Assembly (NCBI GenBank): GCA_023663725.1
Contig: JAMPGX010000013.1
Location: 37,489-101,488 of the forward strand
DNA length: 64,000 nucleotides
Direction of reading: 5' to 3'
Origin: a bacterium
GTDB lineage: Bacteria > Bacillota > Clostridia > Lachnospirales > Lachnospiraceae
The translations under genes were made by a program, and so were the position numbers. How positions within the stretch are numbered: position 1 is the stretch's first letter; each line of letters starts with the position of its first letter. The notes below the pieces were generated by a model. The model ran no database searches, had not been told where the DNA came from, and worked only from the letters and a program-made list of their open reading frames with translations. This document shows, piece after piece, positions 4,906 through 52,783 of the stretch.

Positions 4906-4932
4906 GGAATATACAATATGCACAATGACACT
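4906..4932 (+). repeat. Isolated right end of the 160-bp palindromic repeat
   Basis: GGAATATACAATATGCACAA followed by TGACACT matches the right end of the elements at 10336-10495 and 22985-23144. The similarity continues into GCAAAGC. Left and central parts are missing or too diverged to see. As in the full copies, this end faces the next gene, the regulator at 4957. Confidence 0.6.
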
Positions 4933-10005: not shown

Positions 10006-10077
10006 GGCTGATTGGTCAAGCGGTTAAGACGCCGCCCTCTCACGGCGGAAACAGGGGTTCGATTCCCCTATCAGCTG
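10006..10077 (+). tRNA. tRNA-Glu (anticodon CTC), copy 1
   Basis: 72 bases. Acceptor arm GGCTGAT/ATCAGCT, D-loop GGTCAAGCGGTTAAGAC, anticodon stem CCGCC/GGCGG with loop CTCTCAC giving anticodon CTC, and T-arm AGGGGTTCGATTCCCCT. Discriminator G; no encoded CCA. The first acceptor pair is G-U. Confidence 0.95.
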
Positions 10078-10109: not shown

Positions 10110-10181
10110 GGCTGATTGGTCAAGCGGTTAAGACGCCGCCCTCTCACGGCGGAAACAGGGGTTCGATTCCCCTATCAGCTG
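10110..10181 (+). tRNA. tRNA-Glu (anticodon CTC), copy 2
   Basis: Identical over all 72 bases to the copy at 10006-10077, 32 bases further on. The two share the promoter at 9949 and the terminator at 10211 and are probably processed from one transcript. Confidence 0.95.
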
Positions 10182-10244: not shown

Positions 10245-10335
10245 GTCTAAATATCACAGAGCATTTTTCGTCAAGATAAAAACTTTGCGCGGCTGTATGC
10301 TGTACTTGTAACTTGTAGGCAATTGCAAAACTGTT

Positions 10336-10495
10336 TATTGCCAGTACCGAATTGTGCATATTGTATATTCCATAAGCAATGCCCTTTCGAACCGTCGGTA
10401 CTTAGATGCCGTATTTTGGCATCTTATGTACCGCTACGGTGAGAACGGAGCGAGAGCGTGCTTGCGTTGGAATATACAATATACACAATGACACT
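10336..10495 (+). repeat. 160-bp palindromic interspersed repeat (copy A)
   Basis: It begins TATTGCCAGTACCGAATTGT and ends CACAATGACACT. Outer inverted arms lie at 10352-10372 and 10468-10488. Inside is a second hairpin with arms around GATGCC/GGCATC, flanked by CGGTAC and GTACCG. The same 160-base element is at 22985-23144, and a right-end fragment is at 4906-4932. It fills most of the 300-base gap between the tRNA terminator and the AraC-type gene; nothing else is recognisable in that gap. Confidence 0.8.
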
Positions 10496-10553
10496 GACAT
10501 AGAAACCAAGCTTAGCAATCGTCTATCACAACTCAAGACAGGAGGTGGAGGAA

Positions 10554-14549: not shown

Positions 14550-14728
14550 TCTGTAACCTTTCCCAGATATCCCTGTCATATATCGTGAAACATAATTTCA
14601 CATCCTGATATGAGTACCCGCTGAAGCTGGCAGCAGGCGTTTGTGCGAAGAGAAGCTCTAATGCACACAAGGGCTGCTTCGTGGGAAGAGTCAGGAACAG
14701 GGAAATTTGGGAAAGGGGTATCAGAGAT

Positions 14729-16060
14729 ATGAGAAAGCATTGGAAATGTTTTTTGGGAATCCTGTTGGCGGGAAGTGTGCTGGCGGGCTGCGGCAGCCAG
14801 TCGGGAGGCGCGGAGCCATTTACGAGGGGCGGTGAGCAGGGCGTTGCGGGTGACGGCGGGACGGTTCATAGCGGAATGGACGCATCGGCGGGTGTTTTGG
14901 AGCCGTCCCGAATGCAGATGACACAGGAACCAGTCTGGGACAGACAGGATACGGCTTCATATGAGGCGCTGCGTCTCTTTTCCCAACAGTTGATGTTGGA
15001 GAACATGGAGAAGGAGAATCCTCTGCTGTCGCCGGTGTCCGCTTATCTGGCGCTGGGCATGGTAGGTATGGGCGCTCGGGGGGATACTCTGGGAGAATTT
15101 CAAGCTGTGATGGGTGTCAATATGCCGGCTCTGTCAGGAGAACTGATGGAACGTTATCTGCAGGAGCAGGAGGGCATGACTCTGACAGTTGCCAACTCCG
15201 TCTGGGTGGATCAGCAGTTTGAGCCAGATGAAAAATGGGTTGCGGATATGGAGAATATCTTCAGAGGAAAAGGCTATCGGGGCGTGCTCTCCAGCGAGGA
15301 AGTCATGGAGCAGATCAATACCTGGTGCAGCGACAACACCAGAGGTCTGATCCCGACGATGCTGGATGAGCCCCTGCCCGAAGATGCTCGTCTGGCGCTT
15401 TTGAATGCCATATACTTCAAGGGGGACTGGGCCAGTCCCTTTGATACCGCGAACACTGCAGAGCGCCCTTTTACCAGAGAGGACGGAACGGAATTGCAGG
15501 TGGACACCATGAGCAAGTACAGCAAAAGCCAGAGTTATTTGAGCAGCGCTCTGGGAGAGGGAGTGGTGTTGCCCTATCAGGGGGAGGACTTTGCCTATGT
15601 CGCTATTTTGCCCAGAGAAGGGACTACGGTGCGGGAGTTATACCGGCAGCTTACCCCGGAGGCGTTGGCGGAGCTGCTGGAGAGTGAGAGCGTGGAGCTG
15701 TGTGATCTGCGCCTGCCCAAGTACGAGATCAGCTTTGACCAGAAATTGAACCAAAGCCTGCAGGCCATGGGGCTGACCAGAGCCTTTGACGGGAGTGAGG
15801 CCGATCTTTCCGGCCTGGGCAGAACAGAGCAGGGCGATCCTCCGTGCATCAATCTGGTGAAACAGAAGGCGGTCTTTAAGGTGGATGAGGAGGGGACGGA
15901 GGCCGCCGCCGTGACGCTGGTGTCTGTCAAATGCACGGCTATGGAAGTGCAGCAGGAACCCAGGGAGCTATATTTTGATCGGCCCTTTGTCTATATGATT
16001 CTGGATGTGAAGACCCAGGTGCCGCTGTTCGTAGGGATCATGGACGACCCCAGTAAATAA
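14729..16060 (+). CDS. Lipoprotein serpin (protease inhibitor) 1
   Basis: 443 aa. Lipoprotein signal with lipobox LAGC at ~residues 18-21, a low-complexity linker of ~50 residues, then a full serpin fold (~residues 70-443). Family marks: NAIYFKGDW, FDRPFVYMI and the reactive-loop hinge EEGTEAAAVT. The loop after the hinge reads LVSVKCTAMEVQ. Serpins trap a serine or cysteine protease in a covalent complex; here the protein would sit on the outer membrane face. Start at the ATG 10 bases from GAAAGGGG. It is a tandem paralogue of the next gene, equal in length and mostly identical outside the loop. Probable targets are host or competitor proteases. Confidence 0.93.
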   Translation: MRKHWKCFLGILLAGSVLAGCGSQSGGAEPFTRGGEQGVAGDGGTVHSGMDASAGVLEPSRMQMTQEPVWDRQDTASYEALRLFSQQLMLENMEKENPLLSPVSAYLALGMVGMGARGDTLGEFQAVMGVNMPALSGELMERYLQEQEGMTLTVANSVWVDQQFEPDEKWVADMENIFRGKGYRGVLSSEEVMEQINTWCSDNTRGLIPTMLDEPLPEDARLALLNAIYFKGDWASPFDTANTAERPFTREDGTELQVDTMSKYSKSQSYLSSALGEGVVLPYQGEDFAYVAILPREGTTVRELYRQLTPEALAELLESESVELCDLRLPKYEISFDQKLNQSLQAMGLTRAFDGSEADLSGLGRTEQGDPPCINLVKQKAVFKVDEEGTEAAAVTLVSVKCTAMEVQQEPRELYFDRPFVYMILDVKTQVPLFVGIMDDPSK

Positions 16061-16186
16061 GATAATGCCTATTGGTAACCTTTTTCATTTTTCCCTGTCA
16101 TATAGGGAAAGACACAAAATCTAATCTGGATTTGGGAAGTTCTAAGTCTCATAGACGGTAAAACGATGGAAAGGGGTATCAGAGAT

Positions 16187-17518
16187 ATGAGAAAGCATTG
16201 GAAATGGGTGTTGGGAATACTGTTGGCAGGGAGTGTGCTGGCGGGCTGCGGCAGTCAGACGGGAGGCGCGGAGCCGCTTACAAGGGGCGGCGAATCGGGT
16301 GTTGCGGGAGACGGCGGGACGGTTCAGGGCGAACCGGATGCGCTGGCGGACATCGTTGAGCCGACCCGGACGCAGATGACACAGGAACCGGTCTGGGACA
16401 GACAGGACACGGCCTCCTATGAGGCACTGCAGCGCTTTTCCCAGCAGTTGATGTCGGTGAATATGGATGGGGACAATCCTCTGCTGTCGCCGGTATCCGC
16501 GTATCTGGCGCTTGGCATGGTGGGCATGGGAGCGCGGGGAGACACCCTGCAGGAGTTCCAGAATGTGTTGGGCGTCAATATGCCGGCGTTGTCAGGGGAG
16601 GTGATGAGAAGATATCCCCAGGAGCAGGAGGGCATGATCCTGACGGTCGCCAACTCCGCCTGGGTGGACCAGCAGCTTGAACCGGACGAACAGTGGATCG
16701 CGGACATGGAGGATATCTTCAAGGGCAAGGGCTATCGGGGTGTGCTCTCCAGTGAGGAGATCATGGAGCAGATCAATAGCTGGTGCAGCGACAATACCAG
16801 AGGACTGATCCCGAAGATGCTGGAGCGGCCTTTGAACGTGGAGGCCCGGCTTGTTCTGTTGAACGCCATCTATTTCAAGGGGGACTGGGCCAGTCCCTTT
16901 GACGCCATGGACACTGCTGAGCGCCCTTTTACCAGGGAGGACGGGACGGAATTGCAGGTGGATACCATGAGCAAGTACGGTGAGGACCAGAGGTACTTAA
17001 GCAGCAGCCTGGGCGAAGGGGTAGTGCTGCCCTACCGGGGTGAGGACTTTGCCTATGTAGCCATTCTTCCCAGAGAGGGTATGCAAGTGCGGGAGCTGTA
17101 CCGACAGCTCACCCCGGAGGCGCTGGCGGAGCTGCTGGAGAGTGAGAGCACGGAGCTGTGCAATCTGCGTCTGCCCAAGTACGAGGTCAGCATGGACAGA
17201 AAGTTGAATGAAAGTTTGCAGGCCATAGGACTGGTCAGGGCCTTTGACGAGGAGTTGGCAGACTTTTCCGGACTGGGAAAAACAGAGCAGGGGGATCCGC
17301 TCTATATCAGTTTGGTGAGACAGAAAGCGGTATTTCGGGTAGATGAGAAGGGGACGGAGGCCGCCGCCGTGACGATGGTTGTCATGGATGAATGTGGGAT
17401 GGTGCTGTCACAGGAGCCCAGAGAGCTGTATTTTGACCGTCCCTTTGTCTATATGATTCTGGATGTGAAGACTCAGGCGCCGCTGTTTGTGGGGATCATG
17501 GATGACCCCGGCAAGTAG
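16187..17518 (+). CDS. Lipoprotein serpin (protease inhibitor) 2
   Basis: 443 aa, exactly as long as the serpin at 14729, with the same start context (AAAGGGGTATCAGAGATATG), the same lipobox LAGC and near-identical core blocks. The hinge is EKGTEAAAVT, but the following loop is MVVMDECGMVLS, sharing only two of 12 residues with its twin before both continue with QEPRELYFDRPF. The copy thus changed just the bait segment that selects the protease. Upstream sequence (GTAACCTTT, then CCCTGTCATATA) is also shared with the first copy, so the duplication included the promoter region. Confidence 0.93.
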   Translation: MRKHWKWVLGILLAGSVLAGCGSQTGGAEPLTRGGESGVAGDGGTVQGEPDALADIVEPTRTQMTQEPVWDRQDTASYEALQRFSQQLMSVNMDGDNPLLSPVSAYLALGMVGMGARGDTLQEFQNVLGVNMPALSGEVMRRYPQEQEGMILTVANSAWVDQQLEPDEQWIADMEDIFKGKGYRGVLSSEEIMEQINSWCSDNTRGLIPKMLERPLNVEARLVLLNAIYFKGDWASPFDAMDTAERPFTREDGTELQVDTMSKYGEDQRYLSSSLGEGVVLPYRGEDFAYVAILPREGMQVRELYRQLTPEALAELLESESTELCNLRLPKYEVSMDRKLNESLQAIGLVRAFDEELADFSGLGKTEQGDPLYISLVRQKAVFRVDEKGTEAAAVTMVVMDECGMVLSQEPRELYFDRPFVYMILDVKTQAPLFVGIMDDPGK

Positions 17519-22834: not shown

Positions 22835-22984
22835 TGAGAGACAGCTCCTTAGCATTTCCCTGCTGTAACATTTTACTTTCTTTTCCCCAAAATATCTGGT
22901 ATGATAAAAACAGCATTTAAAAACGGATTCCGATCATACGTTTCTGGCAATACTTATATATTGGCAAACAATTGTAGCACTATC

Positions 22985-23144
22985 TATTGCCAGTACCGAA
23001 TTGTGCATATGGTATATTCCATAAGCAATGCCCTTTCGAACCGTCGGTACTTAGATGCTGTTCTTTAGCATCTTATGTACCGCTACGGTGAGAACGGAGC
23101 GAAAGCGTGCTTGCGTTGGAATATACCATGTACACAATGACACT
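22985..23144 (+). repeat. 160-bp palindromic interspersed repeat (copy B)
   Basis: Same length, orientation and boundaries as 10336-10495. Differences fall in pairs: outer arms ATGGTATATTCC/GGAATATACCAT here against ATTGTATATTCC/GGAATATACAAT in copy A, and inner stem GATGCT/AGCATC here against GATGCC/GGCATC. These keep the pairing, so the fold is under selection or is copied as a palindrome. Its right end faces the NUDIX gene ~60 bases on. The 370-base gap 22835-23205 holds nothing else recognisable. Confidence 0.8.
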
Positions 23145-23205
23145 AGCAAAGCATCTAAATTTTGCAAATGTCCATAATAGCATGGAAAAGAGAGGGGACA
23201 TACCA

Positions 23206-37394: not shown

Positions 37395-38672
37395 ATGACG
37401 AAGATTGATATTGTATCCGGCTTCTTGGGAGCTGGAAAGACCACCTTGATCAAAAAGCTGCTTCAGGAGGCGCTGCAGGATACTCAGGTGGTGCTGATTG
37501 AGAATGAATTTGGTGAGATCGGTATTGACGGCGGCTTTTTAAAGGATGCGGGAATCGAGATCAAGGAGATGAACTCCGGATGTATCTGTTGTTCTCTGGT
37601 GGGGGATTTCGGAGCCTCTCTGAAGGAGGTTCTCACTACTTACAAGCCGGAGCGGGTGCTGATTGAGCCATCAGGGGTGGGCAAGCTCTCTGATGTGGTG
37701 AAGGCGGTGGAGAATGTGGCGGCTGACCTCGAGGTGAGGGTAAACAGCGCCGTGGCCGTGGTGGATGCCTCCAAGTGCAAGATGTATATCAAGAATTTCG
37801 GAGAATTCTTTGTCAATCAGATCGAGCATGCGGGAACCATTATCCTGAGCAGAACTGGCAAGATGTCTCAGGAGAAGCTGCAGGCGGCGGTGGAGCTGAT
37901 CCGCCAGCACAATGCGAAGGCCACCATTATCACTACGCCATGGGAAGAACTGGAGGGCAGGGCGATTCTGGAGACCATAGAGGGTGTGGACAATCTGGAC
38001 GATATGATGAAGGAGATGCTGGAGCATGCCAGAGAGCATGAACATCATCATCACTATGACGAGAACGGCGTATGTAGCTGTGGGCATCACCATGAGCATG
38101 AAGAGGAGTGCGAGCACCACCATCATGATCATGAGGAAAGCTGCGGTCACCATCATTATGAGGAGGAGTGTGGTCACCATCATGAGCATGAAGAGGAGTG
38201 CGAGCACCACCATCACGAGCATGAGGAAGAGCACGAGCATCACCATCATGAGGAAGAGCATGACCACCATCACGAGCATGAGGAGGAGCATGAGCATCAC
38301 CACCATTATGATGAGAACGGCGTGTGCAGTTGTGGCCACCACCATGAAGAGGAGGACGGTCACGGGCATCACCATGACCATCATGGCCACCACCATGCGG
38401 ATGAGGTGTTCGGCAGTTGGGGCAAGGAGACGCCGGGCGCTTACACAGCGGAGGAGATCGAGAGTATTCTGTCCGCTCTGGACGGCGGCGATTATGGTAT
38501 GATTCTGCGCGCCAAGGGTATGGTTTCCGCCGGAGATGGAGGCTGGGTTTATTTTGACTATGTGCCCGAGGAGCATGACATTCGGGAGGGCAAGCCGGAG
38601 GTGACAGGCAAGATCTGTGTCATCGGCTCCCAGTTAAACGAGGAGAAGCTTACAAGGCTGTTTAGCAAATAA
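37395..38672 (+). CDS. COG0523 (CobW/ZNG1-type) metallochaperone GTPase, His-rich
   Basis: 425 aa. G3E GTPase with Walker A GFLGAGKTT (~residues 10-18), the metal-binding CICC motif (~66-69; SGCICCSLVGD) and EPSGVGKLSD. Residues ~210-336 are a low-complexity metal-binding insert with more than 50 His plus Glu, Asp and Cys, in units such as EHEEECEHHHHDHEE. HHHHYDENGVCSCGHHH occurs twice, near its start and end. A C-terminal CobW domain follows (~345-425). These proteins deliver or store zinc or a related metal. Start ATG with GGAAAGGAAG. The smaller partner gene follows 46 bases later. Confidence 0.92.
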   Translation: MTKIDIVSGFLGAGKTTLIKKLLQEALQDTQVVLIENEFGEIGIDGGFLKDAGIEIKEMNSGCICCSLVGDFGASLKEVLTTYKPERVLIEPSGVGKLSDVVKAVENVAADLEVRVNSAVAVVDASKCKMYIKNFGEFFVNQIEHAGTIILSRTGKMSQEKLQAAVELIRQHNAKATIITTPWEELEGRAILETIEGVDNLDDMMKEMLEHAREHEHHHHYDENGVCSCGHHHEHEEECEHHHHDHEESCGHHHYEEECGHHHEHEEECEHHHHEHEEEHEHHHHEEEHDHHHEHEEEHEHHHHYDENGVCSCGHHHEEEDGHGHHHDHHGHHHADEVFGSWGKETPGAYTAEEIESILSALDGGDYGMILRAKGMVSAGDGGWVYFDYVPEEHDIREGKPEVTGKICVIGSQLNEEKLTRLFSK

Positions 38673-46171: not shown

Positions 46172-46183
46172 GAAAGCCTGACA

Positions 46184-46243
46184 GGTGCGCGCCGAAGGAA
46201 CTTCGCCCTTTCGTGCCGTCGCGCGGCGACTTAAAATAGGAGG
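46184..46243 (+). repeat. Structured leader repeat ending in the ribosome site (copy 1, partial)
   Basis: Contains GCGCGCCGAAGGAACTTCGC, CCCTTTCGTGC, the hairpin GCCGTCGCGCGGCGAC and TTAAAATAGGAGG; the last bases are the Shine-Dalgarno of the esterase at 46251. The same order of motifs precedes the genes at 47744 and 52520. Confidence 0.7.
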
Positions 46244-46250
46244 ATGCATT

Positions 46251-47435
46251 ATGAGTGAAAGTAAAAAGGTAATTACACCCATGTCATGGGTTACCACATG
46301 GGGAACAGCGGAGGAGAACTTTATCGCCACTCCGGAGGGGATGCCTCAGCCCCTTGAAAACACAACGGTTCGTCAGATTGTCCGAGTGACGACCTCAGGG
46401 GACGAGATGAAGCTGAGACTTTCCAATCGGTATGGAAAACGTGATGTTGTGATACGCTCTATGCATGTGGCAAAACAGGTAAGAGCAGATCAATCTACGA
46501 TAGACACATCAACGGATACTGTAGTTGAAGCGCTTGGTTCAGAGAAAATAGTTATTCCTGCCGGCGGGGTTATTGAGACGGATGCGTTTAGATTCAGCGT
46601 TAAGGCTCTTGATAATATCGCGATAACCATGTACTTTGGCGCCGCTCCTGTGACCGCGGACGAGATGACAGGGCACAGGGGAGCAAGGGCAACTACCTAT
46701 CAGGTGTCGGGAAACGAAGTTTCGACGGAGACCTTTTCTACACCTGCGACAACTACGTCATGGTATTTTCTGGCGGACGTATCGCTTATGTCTCCGGCGG
46801 GAAGTAAGGCTATAATCTGTTTTGGAGATTCCATAACGGACGGCTTCGGAACAGATTGGGCGGTGCAGGGAAAGAGACCTGACACTTACACGCGATGGGT
46901 GGACTTTTTCGCGAGGAGGCTTCAGGCAAACGATAGCACGAAGCGTCTATCTGTGGTCAACAAGGGCATCGGCGCCAATTCCATATTGGGATCATGGCCT
47001 ACGGATGCAGGGAGGGACAGGTTCAAAAGGGATCTTCTCGGACATGATGGGGCAGGATACTGTATCCTTCTGTTCGGTGTCAACGATCTGCTCTCCCTTT
47101 CCGATACTGGTAAATATGACAGGCTTATCCCCGAATATCAGAAGATGGTGGCGCTGTGCCACGAAAACGGAATTAAAATATATGGTGCGCCCATCCTTCC
47201 TTTTGGAAAGAGCCGAGATCATACCGAGGCTGCCGAGGAGGTGAGAACGAGGATCAACAGCTGGATGCGCAGTCCCGATTCCCATATGGACGGTATCATC
47301 GACTTTGAAAACGCATTGGCAGACCCGACTGACCCCAAGAGTATTTTGCCCCAATACGCTCCGCTAGACGGTCTCCATCCATACGAAGGATATGAAACAA
47401 TGGCTGAAGCAATCGATCTGACAATGTTTGAATAA
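46251..47435 (+). CDS. SGNH/GDSL hydrolase, probable carbohydrate esterase
   Basis: 394 aa. Beta-rich N-terminal part (~1-185; MSWVTTWGTAEENF, KLRLSNRYGKRDVVIRSM), then an SGNH domain with CFGDSITDGFG (Ser194), block III GVNDLLSL and the catalytic Asp/His in DGLHPYEGYE. The opening resembles secreted GDSL esterases, but no signal peptide is seen. It lies between rarA and the GH115 gene; by eye both have lower GC and more A/T-ending codons than their neighbours. Likely to remove ester groups from plant polysaccharide fragments. ATG follows AGGAGG of the leader repeat. Confidence 0.87.
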   Translation: MSESKKVITPMSWVTTWGTAEENFIATPEGMPQPLENTTVRQIVRVTTSGDEMKLRLSNRYGKRDVVIRSMHVAKQVRADQSTIDTSTDTVVEALGSEKIVIPAGGVIETDAFRFSVKALDNIAITMYFGAAPVTADEMTGHRGARATTYQVSGNEVSTETFSTPATTTSWYFLADVSLMSPAGSKAIICFGDSITDGFGTDWAVQGKRPDTYTRWVDFFARRLQANDSTKRLSVVNKGIGANSILGSWPTDAGRDRFKRDLLGHDGAGYCILLFGVNDLLSLSDTGKYDRLIPEYQKMVALCHENGIKIYGAPILPFGKSRDHTEAAEEVRTRINSWMRSPDSHMDGIIDFENALADPTDPKSILPQYAPLDGLHPYEGYETMAEAIDLTMFE

Positions 47436-47447
47436 TAGGTACAGCGC

Positions 47448-47734
47448 GAGAGAACATTACCCTTTAGAGCTGTCGCGCAGCGACTCAAGGTAAAGTTGCG
47501 AAGGCGCACGAGAGGAACTTTCGTGAGAGCACTTTCGAATGAAAGTTCCTCTCATGTGAGTGTGCCGAGAGAACTTTACTCTTTAGTGCTGTCGCGCAGC
47601 GACTCAAGGTAAAGTCGCGAAGGCGCACGAGAGGAACTTTCATGAGTGTATTTTCGAATGAAAGTTTCTCTCACAAGGGCGCGCCGAGAGAACTTTACCC
47701 TTTAGTGCTGTCGCGCAGCGACTCAATTAGGAGG
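47448..47734 (+). repeat. 119-bp tandem structured leader repeat (2.4 units)
   Basis: Units begin GAGAGAAC at 47448, 47567 and 47686, exactly 119 bases apart; the third breaks off at the AGGAGG of the GH115 gene. Each unit folds into CTTTACC/GGTAAAG around the GTCGC/GCGAC hairpin, and a stem GAGAGGAACTTTC/GAAAGTTCCTCTC. It fills the whole 308-base gap. Related single copies lie at 46184 and 52528. Confidence 0.85.
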
Positions 47735-47743
47735 AAACCTAAA

Positions 47744-50700
47744 ATGATACTTGAAGGTACGATCCGTATCGGTTATTACAATGGTGAAACATCCGCAGTG
47801 AAGATCGCCCTTGACAATCTGAAAAATGACTTAAAGAAAATCACGGATGCGGACATACAGCTCGTTGAGCTACGAGCGGAAGAAAGTATGGACGGTATCG
47901 ATATAATGGCCGCCACAAAAAATATCAAAAAATTCGATATTTGTAACAAATCTCCGGAGGAAACAGAGATTCTTGATGCGTGGGAAGGATATGTTATTAA
48001 AGAAAGTGACGGAACTCTCTATATAAACGGAGCCGACAGGCGCGGTACGATCTATGGAATATATGAAATGTCGGCTTATTTTGGCGTATCCCCCTGGTAT
48101 TTCTTTGCGGATGTACCTGTGAGGAAGAAGGCTCGTATTCTCATTCCGGACCGATTTTTTAGAGCAGACTATCCGTCGGTTCAGTACAGGGGTATCTTTT
48201 TAAATGATGAGGAAGAACTGGAGCAGTGGGCCATAAAGCATACAAACGACGACACTATAGGGCCCGAATTGTATGAAAAGATATATGAACTGATCCTTCG
48301 GCTTAAGGGCAATTATCTGTGGCCTGCCATGCATGTCAATTATTTTCAGGAGAATCCCAGGAGCGCATGGTTAGCCAATGAAATGGGCATCGTGATCGGC
48401 ACGTCCCACTGTGATATGCTCATGCGGAGCAACCAGAACGAATGGACGCCCTGGCTTGACAAAAAAGGCTATAAGAGCGATTACAACGCCGTTCACGCAG
48501 GGAAATTGAATACCTCTGAGGCTAAGGAACGGGAAACGATCTATTATGACTATTCGATACCTGGCAAGAACAGAGAGGTGATCAGAGAATACTGGCGCGA
48601 AAGCGTGGAAATGAATCGGGATTACGAGGTCTGTTATACCATTGGCATGAGAGGCGTTCACGATTACGGTTTTTCCACGAGAATGATCAATGAGGACGCT
48701 ACGCTTACTGAAGAGGAAAAGCTCTCGGCAAAAATCAGGCTCTTAGAGACGATCATGGACGACCAGAGGCAGCTCATCAAGGCGGAATGCGGTCTTTCAT
48801 CTGCTGCCTGCGCTTTGCAGTCATTTATACCGTACAAGGAGGTTCTCGAGCTCTATAACGCAGGTCTTGTGATCCCTGATGACGTCACTCTCATTTGGGT
48901 AAATGATAATTTCGGGCATATACGGCGTTATCCGGATGAAAAGGAGAGAGAAAGAGCCGGCGGGCACGGATTGTATTTTCATGCCTCCTATTGGGGAGCC
49001 ACCGAGATGAGCTATCTTTTCTTCAATACGATGCCTCTTTCGCATACTACAAATGAGCTTAGAAAAGCATATGCCAACGGCATACGAAGGATGTGGGTCT
49101 TGAACGTAGGCGCACTCAAGCCGCTTGAAATGGACATGGAAACGTTTCTTGCCTACGCGTGGGACGCGGGTAAGGATACGCCTGTGACCTGTGATATTCA
49201 TGCCTATACTGCCCAGTGGTTTGATTCCTACTTTTCGGGCGGATATGGCGAGGAGCTTGCGGATTTATACGAGGAATACGTGCATCTGACCAACGCCAGA
49301 AAGATAGAGCATATGCAGCCCATGATATTTGCTCAGGCAGGCTATGGAGACGAGGCCGGAGCGCGTCTGTGCGGACTCGAAAGAGTATTTGCACGGTCCA
49401 ATGAGATATATACATGTCTTCCCGACGATGAGAAGGATGCCTTTTTTCAGATGTTTTTGTTTAAGGTACATGCCTCCTATTATGTGAATCATGCGTTTTA
49501 TTATGCCGACCGCAGCGTTCTGTCTTATGACAGAGGAAACGATATGGCTGCGGATCTTTATACAGAATATTCGCGCAAAATGACCCAGTATCTAAAAAAG
49601 ATGCTGCGTTATTACAATGTGCATATGCAGGACGGAAAGTGGGAAGGTATTCTCACTCCCGACTCTTTCCCGCCCCCAGGCATCTGTTTTTATCCTGTGT
49701 GCAGACCTTCAATCAAGAGAAGAGAGCTTGCTGTTAAGGCCATTCTGTGGGACGGCAGCGAAACTTTGACGGAGGGGAGCCTTGTATTTTACAGTGGAGG
49801 CATACGGAAAAAATGGTTTGAACTCGGCAATACCCGCGCGCGTGCTATCTCGTATGAAATAACCGGAAAACCGGCATGGCTTGATATATCCGAGGAATCA
49901 GGCGAAATCAATGCGGAGAAACGTATCTACATAAGTGTTAACGAGGAGACAGCCTATGTGGAGAACAAGGAGGCTGAACTGACAATCCGCCTCGTTGAAC
50001 AGGAGCAGGAAATCCATGTGAAGGTCAGGGCGAAGGCCGGATGTGCAGATGGTGAAAGCCGCCTGTCCCATGCGGAGGACGACGGGGCGGTTTGTATCTA
50101 TGCGGAAGATTACAAGGAGTGCTGCTGCGCGCCCGTACATATACCGCCGCTTGAGAAAACCGGCTGGTATAAGATATATGGTATGGGGCGGGAAGGTCAC
50201 AGCGCGGTTATGGCATATAATTCCAAGCTTGGTCCGTTAAGCGACGCATCTCTAACGGATAATCCTTACATTACATATGAGTTTTCCCTCTTCAGCGAGG
50301 GCGAATTTGAGCTGGAGATCACAAGATTCCTCACGCTTGACTCTGTGGGCAGAGTCAGATTTGGCATCGGTATTGACGGTATTGAGCCGTTTATTATGGA
50401 GTCGAATACTAACGACGAATGGCGGGCAAACTGGCATGACAGCGTTATGAATAACGGTGAGAAATTGTATACAAAACTCCCGTATTTGTCCGCAGGCAGG
50501 CATACGATAAGGGTGTATATGATCGATAATTATGTGACGCTGGATAAGCTTGTCATATACACGTTAACGAGGCGCGAAACCTATTATGGAGCCTTTTTCG
50601 TGCATTCTAACGCAGATGAACCCAAGGTATGCTGGGAGGAGCTTGACAGCATTCGAGCGAAGCTTTATCGCGAGGACAGCGCAGTACTATTGCCCGATAT

Positions 50701-51388
50701 GGTATATGCCGATCAGGAATTCTGGAAGTATAACAGGCTTTATATGAAAAATGACATTGTCAGGCAGTCCTATATGGATAGGGGACGGTATGACAGTTAT
50801 TACGAGGACGGGTCTACAGAGGATATAACGGCTTTGTTTGGCAGAGGCGTCTTTGCCGAACAGAATGGGAGGATTGCCATCGACGCGGAGTATGCGCTTG
50901 CGGATGATGCAGACGCATATCTCACGCCTGACGCGACAGGTAAGATATATTGGAGACATGTGCGCGCGCTGACCGACGCAGGCCATGGCCTTGCGATGCA
51001 GGTATCCGGCAGACCACATACCTGGGAAAAGGCAAAGGATGCTCCGGGGATGCATTATCGCATTCAGGTTTCGGAGGAAGGTGAGTATCATGTATGGCTC
51101 CTTATATTGTATGAGAACCATATGTCGGATAGCTGCTATTTCGCGGTTGACGGCGAAGCGCTTCCCCGAAGCATGCAGTACAATAACGGTCAGCTGTGTC
51201 AGTATGCAACGCTGCATATGTATTATTGGTGTCTGACAGGTAAGATACATTTCTCCTCAGGAGAACACATCTTCTCCATATATGCATGCGATACAGGACT
51301 TCAGATAGACAGAATCTACTTAAGTCAAGGGGAGGAGCGACCGCCGCTCGATAAGGATTGGACGGTTTCCCCTAGATATATTTTTTGA
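47744..51388 (+). CDS. GH115 family glycosidase, probable xylan alpha-1,2-glucuronidase
   Basis: 1214 aa. N-terminal hexosaminidase-like domain (~1-130), catalytic barrel from ~140 (YRGIFLNDEEELEQWA, LRLKGNYLWPAMHVNYF, YTIGMRGVHDYGF), a long linker and C-terminal GH115-type beta domains (WLDISEESGEINAEKRIYIS; MHYRIQVSEEGEYHVWLLIL). Family 115 enzymes remove (4-O-methyl-)glucuronic acid from xylan. No signal peptide, so it should act on imported oligosaccharides. Start ATG 47744 with AGGAGG; an upstream in-frame ATG at 47642 lies in the repeat and was rejected. Its last 17 bases overlap the convergent malic enzyme gene. Confidence 0.93.
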   Translation: MILEGTIRIGYYNGETSAVKIALDNLKNDLKKITDADIQLVELRAEESMDGIDIMAATKNIKKFDICNKSPEETEILDAWEGYVIKESDGTLYINGADRRGTIYGIYEMSAYFGVSPWYFFADVPVRKKARILIPDRFFRADYPSVQYRGIFLNDEEELEQWAIKHTNDDTIGPELYEKIYELILRLKGNYLWPAMHVNYFQENPRSAWLANEMGIVIGTSHCDMLMRSNQNEWTPWLDKKGYKSDYNAVHAGKLNTSEAKERETIYYDYSIPGKNREVIREYWRESVEMNRDYEVCYTIGMRGVHDYGFSTRMINEDATLTEEEKLSAKIRLLETIMDDQRQLIKAECGLSSAACALQSFIPYKEVLELYNAGLVIPDDVTLIWVNDNFGHIRRYPDEKERERAGGHGLYFHASYWGATEMSYLFFNTMPLSHTTNELRKAYANGIRRMWVLNVGALKPLEMDMETFLAYAWDAGKDTPVTCDIHAYTAQWFDSYFSGGYGEELADLYEEYVHLTNARKIEHMQPMIFAQAGYGDEAGARLCGLERVFARSNEIYTCLPDDEKDAFFQMFLFKVHASYYVNHAFYYADRSVLSYDRGNDMAADLYTEYSRKMTQYLKKMLRYYNVHMQDGKWEGILTPDSFPPPGICFYPVCRPSIKRRELAVKAILWDGSETLTEGSLVFYSGGIRKKWFELGNTRARAISYEITGKPAWLDISEESGEINAEKRIYISVNEETAYVENKEAELTIRLVEQEQEIHVKVRAKAGCADGESRLSHAEDDGAVCIYAEDYKECCCAPVHIPPLEKTGWYKIYGMGREGHSAVMAYNSKLGPLSDASLTDNPYITYEFSLFSEGEFELEITRFLTLDSVGRVRFGIGIDGIEPFIMESNTNDEWRANWHDSVMNNGEKLYTKLPYLSAGRHTIRVYMIDNYVTLDKLVIYTLTRRETYYGAFFVHSNADEPKVCWEELDSIRAKLYREDSAVLLPDMVYADQEFWKYNRLYMKNDIVRQSYMDRGRYDSYYEDGSTEDITALFGRGVFAEQNGRIAIDAEYALADDADAYLTPDATGKIYWRHVRALTDAGHGLAMQVSGRPHTWEKAKDAPGMHYRIQVSEEGEYHVWLLILYENHMSDSCYFAVDGEALPRSMQYNNGQLCQYATLHMYYWCLTGKIHFSSGEHIFSIYACDTGLQIDRIYLSQGEERPPLDKDWTVSPRYIF

Positions 51389-52520
51389 CGGCGGCGGCTA
51401 CTACCTCTGCTACCTTGGGGTTGAAGGCCTCGGGCATGATGTTCTCATCCGAGAGCTCCTCCTCCGGCACCAGAGAGGCGATGGCCTCCGCAGCGGCCAG
51501 CTTCATCTCCTCAGTGATCTGTCGTGCGCGTCCCTCCAGAGCGCCTTTGAAGATGCCGGGGAACGCCACCACATTGTTCACCTGGTTGGGGAAATCGCTG
51601 CGGCCGGTTCCCACCACGCGGGCTCCGGCGGCTCTGGCAATATCGGGCATGATCTCAGGCACGGGGTTAGCCATGGCAAAGAGGATGGAATCATGATTCA
51701 TGGAAGCCACCATCTCGGGCGTGACAATATTGGGGGCGGAGACACCCACAAAGATATCCGCGCCTCGCAGAGCGTCAGCCAGAGAGCCGGTCCTGCCCTC
51801 CAGATTGGTAACCTCGGCCATCCTCTGTTGCATCCAGTTCAGTCCCTCCGTGGATTTGGAGATGATGCCCACCTTGTCACACATGATGATATGGGGAAAA
51901 CCGTATGTCAGCAGAAGTCTGGTGATGGCCACCCCAGCGCTTCCGGCACCGTTGACCACGATATGGCAGTCCTCCTTTTTCTTGCCGACGACCTTGAGGG
52001 CGTTGATAATTCCCGCCAGCACCACGATGGCGGTGCCATGCTGATCGTCGTGGAATACGGGGATGTCCAGAGTGGCCTTCAGCCGCTCCTCGATCTCAAA
52101 GCATCTGGGGGCGGAGATGTCTTCCAGATTGATGCCTCCGAAGCCGGGAGCCAGCCAGGTTACGGCCTTGATGATCTCCTCCGTGTCCTGAGTATCCAAG
52201 CAGATGGGTACGGCGTTGACCCCGCCAAATTCCTTGAACAATACGGCCTTGCCCTCCATGACCGGCATGGCGGCATAGGGACCGATATTTCCCAGTCCCA
52301 GCACGGCGCTGCCGTCAGATACCACGGCCACGGTATTGGCCTTCATCGTATAAGTGTATGCTGCTTCCGGATCCTGGGCGATGACCTTGCAGGGTTCAGC
52401 CACGCCGGGAGTGTATGCCAGTGCGAGGTCTTCTCTGGATTTTACGGGAGTCTTGGAAATGGTCTCCAGCTTGCCATTCCACTGCTCGTGAAGCACCAGT
52501 GCTTTTTCGTTGGTTGTCAT
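51372..52520 (-). CDS. Malic enzyme
   Basis: 382 aa. Malic domain with [18 protein letters not shown] at the N-terminus and [20 protein letters not shown], then an NAD(P)-binding domain ([20 protein letters not shown]). The short bacterial form without phosphotransacetylase domain. It converts malate to pyruvate and CO2, reducing NAD(P). The start ATG 52520 follows AGGAGG, which belongs to a leader repeat; a longer upstream reading is repeat sequence. It converges on GH115 with 17 shared bases and no terminator between. Confidence 0.95.
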
Positions 52521-52527
52521 GGTGTTA

Positions 52528-52656
52528 CCTCCTATTTTAAGTCGCTGCGCGACGGCACTAAAGGGCGAAGTTCCTTCGGCGCACACCAGGGAGAGACAAA
52601 TTTCATTCGTAAGGTATCTCATGAAATTTGCTCTCGTGCGCCTTCGCAACTTCACC
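52528..52656 (-). repeat. Structured leader repeat ending in the ribosome site (copy 3)
   Basis: Read on the minus strand it has the same order as the 119-bp units: GCGAAGGCGCACGAGAGCAA, a stem AAATTTCAT/ATGAAATTT in place of AACTTTCAT/ATGAAAGTT, GTGCGCCGAAGGAACTTCGC, CCCTTTAGTGC, the GTCGCGCAGCGAC hairpin and AAAATAGGAGG. The stem bases change together. Beyond it lies a perfect 14-bp palindrome TGTCAAGCTTGACA at 52657-52670. Confidence 0.75.
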
Positions 52657-52783
52657 TGTCAAGCTTGACATTTCCTAGTTGATATTTCTTAGCTGAACTA
52701 ATTTAAAGTCGTTGCGCTATGCTTTCTATTTTAACGGCAATATGTCTATTTTTCAAGAAAATTATTTTTTTTCAAAAATTGGC

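What the first reader, a model, noticed from the sequence alone, without database searches (positions are those of the whole stretch)
46184..52656. Structured repeats supply the ribosome site of three unrelated genes
Copies at 46184-46243, 47448-47734 (tandem 119-bp units) and 52528-52656 (minus strand) all end in the hairpin GTCGCGCAGCGAC or a close variant, then an A-rich spacer and AGGAGG, directly before an esterase, GH115 and malic enzyme. Translated, the first and third read AEGTSPF(R/S)AVA(R/Q)RLKIGG before the true start. Stems covary: AACTTTCAT/ATGAAAGTT against AAATTTCAT/ATGAAATTT. A repeat that carries its own Shine-Dalgarno and sits exactly at gene starts could be a shared translational switch or a portable leader.
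Basis: seen in the sequence. Interest (0 to 1): 0.8.

Follow-up and report, generated by a model that had tools for sequence, protein, structure and literature searches.

The report
Mobile repeats that rebuild ribosome-binding sites
In a group of gut bacteria, short folded DNA repeats have inserted into the ribosome-binding site just before genes and rebuilt that site with their own end, so the gene keeps its start signal.

Summary
In detail: the three repeats are real, structured, and end at the Shine-Dalgarno (SD) of three unrelated genes. A model blind to the SD finds 67 copies in the genome. Of about 45 array-terminal copies, 43 sit directly before a gene start. Relatives (Acetatifactor and kin) carry up to at least 150 matches.

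Comparing orthologous SDs shows what they are. Full-length family A is about 173 bp: left hairpin, long palindrome, right hairpin, tail ...AATAG. It inserts at AG^GAGG, inside an existing SD. At one site (coding starts 96.6% identical) GCGACTTTAAATAG|GAGG becomes GCGACTTTAAATAG|[A]|GAGG. The repeat supplies TAG; the gene keeps its own GAGG. A different palindrome, family B, ends at the same point with a similar tail. The same SD can be empty, A-filled, B-filled or A+B in different genomes.

Stems covary (17 of 38 pairs). Downstream genes share no pathway. Best reading: non-autonomous mobile elements that target and regenerate SDs. A regulatory switch is not supported. The mobilising enzyme is unknown; IS200/REP-type transposase was not found in 11 carrier genomes.

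The parts
46179..46239 (+). Decayed family A unit before the esterase: inner palindrome deleted, right block kept; hairpin 46218-46230, tail TTAAAATAG ends 46239
   Evidence: deletion read by eye
46238..46243 (+). Shine-Dalgarno AGGAGG: AG from the element, GAGG (46240-46243) of the gene by analogy with empty sites
   Evidence: junction
46251..47435 (+). GDSL esterase gene
47441..47488 (+). First unit of the array, right block only
47489..47607 (+). Second array unit (119 bp: palindrome, linker, hairpin)
47608..47730 (+). Third, SD-proximal array unit; hairpin 47710-47722, tail TCAATTAG ends 47730
47729..47734 (+). Shine-Dalgarno AGGAGG of GH115 spanning the element-gene junction
47744..51388 (+). 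GH115 glycoside hydrolase gene
51372..52520 (-). Malic enzyme gene
52528..52533 (-). Shine-Dalgarno AGGAGG of malic enzyme spanning the junction
52532..52697 (-). Full-length family A unit (166 bp): left end TTCAGCTAAGAAAT at 52697, palindrome, hairpin 52541-52553, tail TTAAAATAG
52698..52722 (-). Relic right end of an older unit (GCATAGCGCAACGACTTTAAATTAG) directly upstream

Best explanation
These are copies of a non-autonomous mobile element (family A) whose insertion target is the Shine-Dalgarno sequence. Insertion falls between AG and GAGG. The element's right end finishes ...AATAG, so the insertion rebuilds an AGGAGG at nearly the old distance from the start codon and adds an A/T-rich spacer and a hairpin 6-7 nt upstream. 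Shown: repeat number, fixed offset to the SD, insertion into native SDs in orthologous pairs, compensatory stem changes, and a second family (B) at the same point. Inferred: that the element is recognised through its folded sense strand and shared 3' tail; that rebuilding the SD is why insertion before essential genes is tolerated; that tandem arrays grow by repeated insertion or unequal recombination at the same point. Not known: the enzyme, and whether copies change translation.
For: (1) 67 copies, 43 of 45 terminal ones at gene starts. (2) In loci of relatives (L213-L325), of 180 right ends classified, 94 are followed by SD and start, 44 by another A unit, 15 by B and 27 by other (5 duplicates and 4 at locus edges set aside); 88 of the 94 have the SD 6-7 nt after the hairpin. 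(3) Clean pairs: L214 vs L088, one full A unit inserted at AATAG^GAGG (coding start 96.6% identical); L264 vs L303, 277 bp inserted at AG^GAGG with flanks 80% and 82% identical; L358 vs L350 and L327 vs L376/L377/L387. (4) The same SD holds A in L353/L357 and B in L332, gene 97% identical. (5) TAG^GAG in 74/95 element-bearing vs 19/204 element-free SDs. (6) Tandem junction often reads ...AATAG|TCCAGC..., as expected if a unit sits at the same point. (7) Covariation: 17 of 38 pairs changed on both sides, 0 of 500 shuffles reach that; slid structures give 3-6. (8) Family B: of 36 candidates, 26 run into SD and start, 6 into another unit, 4 had no tail found (of its 5 'next unit' and 1 'other', the last also continues into a B-like unit by eye).
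Against: No autonomous partner or transposase was found. Most orthologous sites compared are too diverged to show the exact junction (19 pairs listed, one clean). Some relatives of filled sites do not read AG^GAG: GAAAACATGGGAG in L369, L348 and L385, CGGAGG in L341 and L379, CAGAACGGAGG in L391, so the target may be looser than AG^GAGG or the base before GGAG has changed. In one pair (L356 vs L359) the shared unit is the SD-proximal one, so arrays do not always grow at the SD side, or units are lost. Some loci keep the element in distant species (mutL in G000 and G021, iscU, nadE), which could also reflect selection. Some copies end away from a start (2 of 45 here; 6 of the 27 'other' by eye, and 6 more have only a weak SD). 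In one search one of five measures (further pair types, 34 vs 33.7) did not exceed shuffles.
Confidence: 0.84

Rival explanations
1. A shared cis-regulatory RNA (translational switch) that controls a regulon by hiding or exposing the SD.
For: Position at the SD, conserved fold with compensatory changes, more G-U than A-C cells on the sense strand (61 vs 14 in A; columns 16 vs 5, p=0.027), persistence at some orthologous genes.
Against: Downstream genes share no pathway; the same SD is empty, A- or B-filled in relatives; the SD lies outside the consensus fold; matches run from none to at least 150 among relatives; no Rfam match up to E=1 for one A+B stretch.
Confidence: 0.06
2. REP/BIME-like repeats moved by a RAYT or other IS200/IS605 Y1 transposase in trans.
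For: Single orientation to the target, hairpin just inside the right end, no long target duplication; Y1 genes are present in some copy-rich genomes (matches: G078 7, G083 6, G079 4), and the tnpA SD of L401 and L403 itself reads TAGGAGG.
Against: No Y1_Tnp match in G000, G021, G057, G077, G084, G086, G087 or G019, G056, G059, G067, although all carry copies (138 matches in G077; these are drafts, so a lost contig is possible). In 11 of 12 Y1 loci an ORF was read and none is bounded by A or B ends; several show other end hairpins.
Confidence: 0.12
3. Ordinary intergenic repeats that spread at random; copies near SDs are those that survived or were co-opted as ribosome-binding sites.
For: Intergenic space near starts is a common place for repeats; copies decay by inner palindrome loss (by eye).
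Against: A near-constant 6-7 nt offset, 43 of 45 at starts, exact AG^GAGG junctions in the clean pairs and two unlike families at one point need targeting, not survival.
Confidence: 0.06
4. A retro-element (bacterial SINE-like RNA) copied by a reverse transcriptase and primed at the SD.
For: Sense-strand fold with G-U bias, fixed 3' end, shared 3' tail of A and B, variable 5' extent.
Against: 5' starts of copies that reach the right end cluster (others, n=207: 44 at model positions 1-8, 71 at 41-56, 61 at 113-144; own, n=68: 4, 20 and 36) rather than spreading evenly; no reverse transcriptase was tested.
Confidence: 0.1

Closest known systems
REP/BIME sequences with RAYT transposases (recalled)
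   Same: Short palindromic, many copies, non-coding, near genes, tandem arrays
   Different: REPs mostly lie in 3' or extragenic regions and go with a RAYT; here the copies sit in the SD and no Y1 match was found in 11 carriers
BOX, RUP and SPRITE repeats of pneumococcus (PMC3049150; passages read)
   Same: Small interspersed parasitic-looking repeats, clustered, inserting into one another
   Different: The passages read do not place them at SDs; SD is mentioned once, for lack of good candidates in ORFs formed by BOX elements
MITEs of DNA transposons, e.g. MITEAba12 (PMC6382973; search listing only)
   Same: Non-autonomous, short (recalled)
   Different: Family A has separate end hairpins rather than terminal inverted repeats; target is AG^GAGG
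IS110/IS1111 elements with guide RNA (PMC11187229; search listing only)
   Same: Specific target-site selection
   Different: No IS110 transposase match in G000 or G082, both with many copies; no link to SDs known to me
IS200/IS605 ends (recalled)
   Same: Oriented insertion 3' of a short motif; hairpin near the right end followed by a short tail
   Different: No transposase gene inside; target is constrained on both sides

Membership tests
MITE | short, no ORF, many copies | tested here: met
   A is 166-182 bp (tail included) in 45 full units; 67 matches in G000
MITE | terminal inverted repeats | tested here: not met
   In A the left hairpin (cols 2-48) and right hairpin (156-168) are separate; ends do not pair. 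B pairs nearly end to end except for a 15-nt tail
MITE | target-site duplication | tested here: inconclusive
   Junctions share only AG/TAG; this may be target or element end
MITE | autonomous relative with the same ends | tested here: inconclusive
   None seen in the loci held; left-to-right distances are mostly 162-173, shorter with inner deletions; a few longer values follow weak left-end matches
REP/RAYT | Y1 (RAYT) transposase in the genome | tested here: not met
   No match in G000 and ten other carriers; present in others
Riboswitch / cis-regulatory leader | conserved structure in the 5' leader | tested here: met
   that it is transcribed is assumed
Riboswitch / cis-regulatory leader | downstream genes share pathway or ligand | tested here: not met
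   35 of the terminal genes scanned
Riboswitch / cis-regulatory leader | condition-dependent expression | not testable with these tools
   needs an experiment
Known Rfam family | match to a curated model | tested here: not met
   Window at gathering: only RNase P and two tRNAs; L306 5450-5900 with A and B: none at E<=1
SD-targeted mobile element (proposed) | clean empty site with native GAGG | tested here: met
   L214/L088, L303/L264, L350/L358; other relatives of some filled sites lack the AG

The most novel reading that the evidence does not exclude
A new class of bacterial mobile element that recognises the translation-initiation signal itself. Unlike folded families (A and B) share a 3' tail ACTnnAATAG and one unknown machinery that inserts them at AG^GAGG, perhaps through the folded sense strand (RNA or single-stranded DNA). 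The insertion heals the Shine-Dalgarno, so the element can live before essential genes and turns many ribosome-binding sites of a genome into hybrids of host and parasite.
Probability: 0.4. Interest if true: 0.9.

Novelty: new variant of a known kind. Interest (0 to 1): 0.78.

Why it matters
Mobile elements need sites where they do no harm. Known answers (recalled) are tRNA genes, terminators and intergenic palindromes. A self-healing insertion into the Shine-Dalgarno would be a different solution, placing an element at a gene's most sensitive point without breaking it. It would also mean that in some gut bacteria the ribosome-binding sites of dozens of genes, including ones expected to be essential, were rewritten by a parasite. 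The tail and target are short, so the machinery can be looked for directly and might make a tool that inserts leaders at native ribosome-binding sites.

Tried and rejected
Shared pathway of downstream genes: rejected. IS200/RAYT as mobiliser: not supported. IS110: no match in G000 and G082, present in other carriers, so not required now. Phage or plasmid carriage: no match (viral contigs patterns; plasmids and phages by blastn with 47448-47745). Even 5' truncation: not seen; one search's bins mixed in the palindrome read on the other strand (40 such hits printed), so I recounted sense copies only (8 of 9 own and 78 of 85 other short hits were antisense). A third SD-targeted family in L089: rejected by reading; the insert is bounded by TA and lies in the tail of A, so it looks like an ordinary TA-target MITE. 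Other abundant SD-adjacent families: none found in the loci held, most of which were chosen for A. frr and mutL comparisons gave no clean empty site because relatives are too far away. Family B in this genome: none in the window or own stretches fetched; the rest of the genome was not searched for B. Rows dropped: B alignment row L285:2168 is a false member, left and removed. Of the 33 diverse full A units listed, 29 were aligned. The Roseibium locus (L289) is taken as chance. Of the 27 'other', by eye 9 continue into a B-like unit, 5 into another A piece, 1 is Roseibium, 6 have a start with a weak SD, and 6 have none.
Full report
What is there. The full unit in the window is on the minus strand at 52532-52697; a relic right end of an older unit lies just upstream to about 52722. 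The copy before the esterase has, by eye, lost its inner palindrome. The copy before GH115 is an array of three, the first cut down to its right block. The genes are a GDSL esterase, GH115 and malic enzyme.

How many and where. A covariance model ending at the right hairpin, so blind to the Shine-Dalgarno (SD), was built from 20 copies. It finds 67 places in the genome at E<=0.1. One search sorted them into 20 internal and 47 terminal copies, 42 of which pass an SD-plus-start test. By eye two of the five failures are internal and one has a start 28 nt away, giving 43 of 45. Of 123,800 window positions on both strands, 2.3% pass the same test. In the genus sample 15 of 61 genomes, this one included, have a match at E<=0.01 (stricter filters, and G048 and G062 are single matches near the limit). 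The 14 genomes reached through named loci have 8 to 150 matches (150 is the scoring cap). The 80 listed rows are titled Acetatifactor, Lachnospiraceae, Lachnoclostridium, [Clostridium] symbiosum, Clostridia bacterium, Bacterium 1XD21-13 or uncultured bacterium, plus one Roseibium hit that I take as chance.

Anatomy. Family A is about 173 bp (45 full units, 166-182 with tail). From left to right: TCCAGCTAAGAAATGTCAAG with a short left hairpin, a long palindrome, the linker CTTTAGTGCC, the hairpin GTCGCGCAGCGAC, and a tail such as TTAAAATAG. The consensus fold of 29 units has 38 pairs, 17 with a kept change on both sides. 96.9% of cells pair, against 32-44% when partners are slid. Four of five measures exceed all 500 shuffles; the count of further pair types does not (34 vs mean 33.7). 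G-U cells outnumber A-C cells 61 to 14 in A and 60 to 11 in B; by columns 16 to 5 (p=0.027) and 10 to 4 (p=0.18). So the sense strand, as RNA or single-stranded DNA, seems to be the folded form under selection; the case is weak for B. Family B is a different palindrome of about 105 bp ending ATATTACGGAACTGGAATAG. Of 36 candidates 26 run into SD and start, 6 into another unit, and 4 had no tail found. A and B share the tail pattern ACTnnAATAG. No B was seen in the window or the own-genome stretches fetched.

Insertion into the SD. Orthologous sites settle the main question. In L214 the gene is preceded by one A unit, then TTTAAATAG|GAGGATAAAATG. L088 is the same up to TTTAAATAG, then has a further full A unit, then TAG|GAGGATAAAATG; the coding starts are 96.6% identical. 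L303 reads GAGTTTTTACAG|GAGG; L264 reads GAGTTTTTATAG, 277 bp of elements, then AG|GAGG, with 628 and 398 bp of flanks at 80 and 82% identity. L350 reads GAAAACATAG|GAGG; L358 has a shortened A between GAAAACATAG and GAGAG, while L369, L348 and L385 read GAAAACATGGGAG. At one SD, A is present in L353 and L357 and B in L332. Behind elements 74 of 95 SDs read TAG^GAG; in element-free genes 19 of 204 do. The element therefore brings TAG, and the gene keeps GAGG. Whether the target must read AG before insertion is less sure: some relatives of filled sites read CGGAGG or ACGGAGG there (L341, L379, L391).

What it most likely does. The downstream genes are varied (valS, frr, mutL, nadE, ispG, purC, purH, araD, uppP, rsmE, iscU/nifU, ABC transporters and others; 35 of the terminal genes were scanned, several without a match). 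Occupancy differs between relatives. I read this as a mobile element that survives because its insertion heals the ribosome-binding site. Mobility and junction are shown by comparison. Targeting through the tail and fold, and neutrality, are inferred. Direction of array growth is open: L214/L088 shows addition next to the SD, but L356/L359 shares the SD-proximal unit.

What moves it. Unknown. No Y1 transposase match was found in 11 genomes that carry copies, and no IS110 match in G000 and G082; the genomes are drafts. Twelve Y1 loci were examined for A or B ends; one gave no ORF, and none of the other 11 is bounded by them, though stray hairpin or left-end matches lie 0.2-1 kb upstream in five. 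No copy was found in viral contigs, phages or plasmids at the patterns and sensitivity used.

Literature. Eight searches ran; their listings showed no report of SD-targeted repeats. I read passages of PMC3049150 and PMC2229807 and saw PMC11187229 and PMC6382973 in listings only. The library lacks most subscription journals, so absence is not proof.

Noticed in passing
L089 (insert before GAGGATAAAATGTC): A palindrome TA-CTGC...GCAG-TA of about 100 bp has inserted in the tail of an A unit; it looks like a TA-target MITE that struck the repeat.
   Followed up: partly
L394, L342, L392, L386, upstream of SDs: Several element-free SDs are preceded by tail-like scraps (GACTTAAAATCAGGAGG, GCGGAACAGGAG) that may be scars of lost A or B units.
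   Followed up: no
L401 and L403, start of the Y1 transposase gene: The SD of two IS200-like transposase genes reads TAGGAGG, the same form as behind A and B.
   Followed up: no
L144, L403, L401, L143: IS200-like elements of these genomes have their own end hairpins (CCCCCAGC..GCTGGGG or CCCCCAT..ATGGGGG), unlike A and B.
   Followed up: partly
window 10006-10077 and 10110-10181: Two near-identical tRNA genes in tandem.
   Followed up: no
window 14553-17517: Direct repeats at 1458-bp spacing (84-88% identical), perhaps a duplicated gene.
   Followed up: no
window 10320-10526 and 22969-23175 (39 bases also at 4906): A 207-bp direct repeat, 88% identical, beside the tRNA pair and elsewhere.
   Followed up: no
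window 38079-38371: Repeated CAC/CAT and GAG units that would read as histidine/glutamate-rich if coding, possibly a metal-binding protein (not translated).
   Followed up: no
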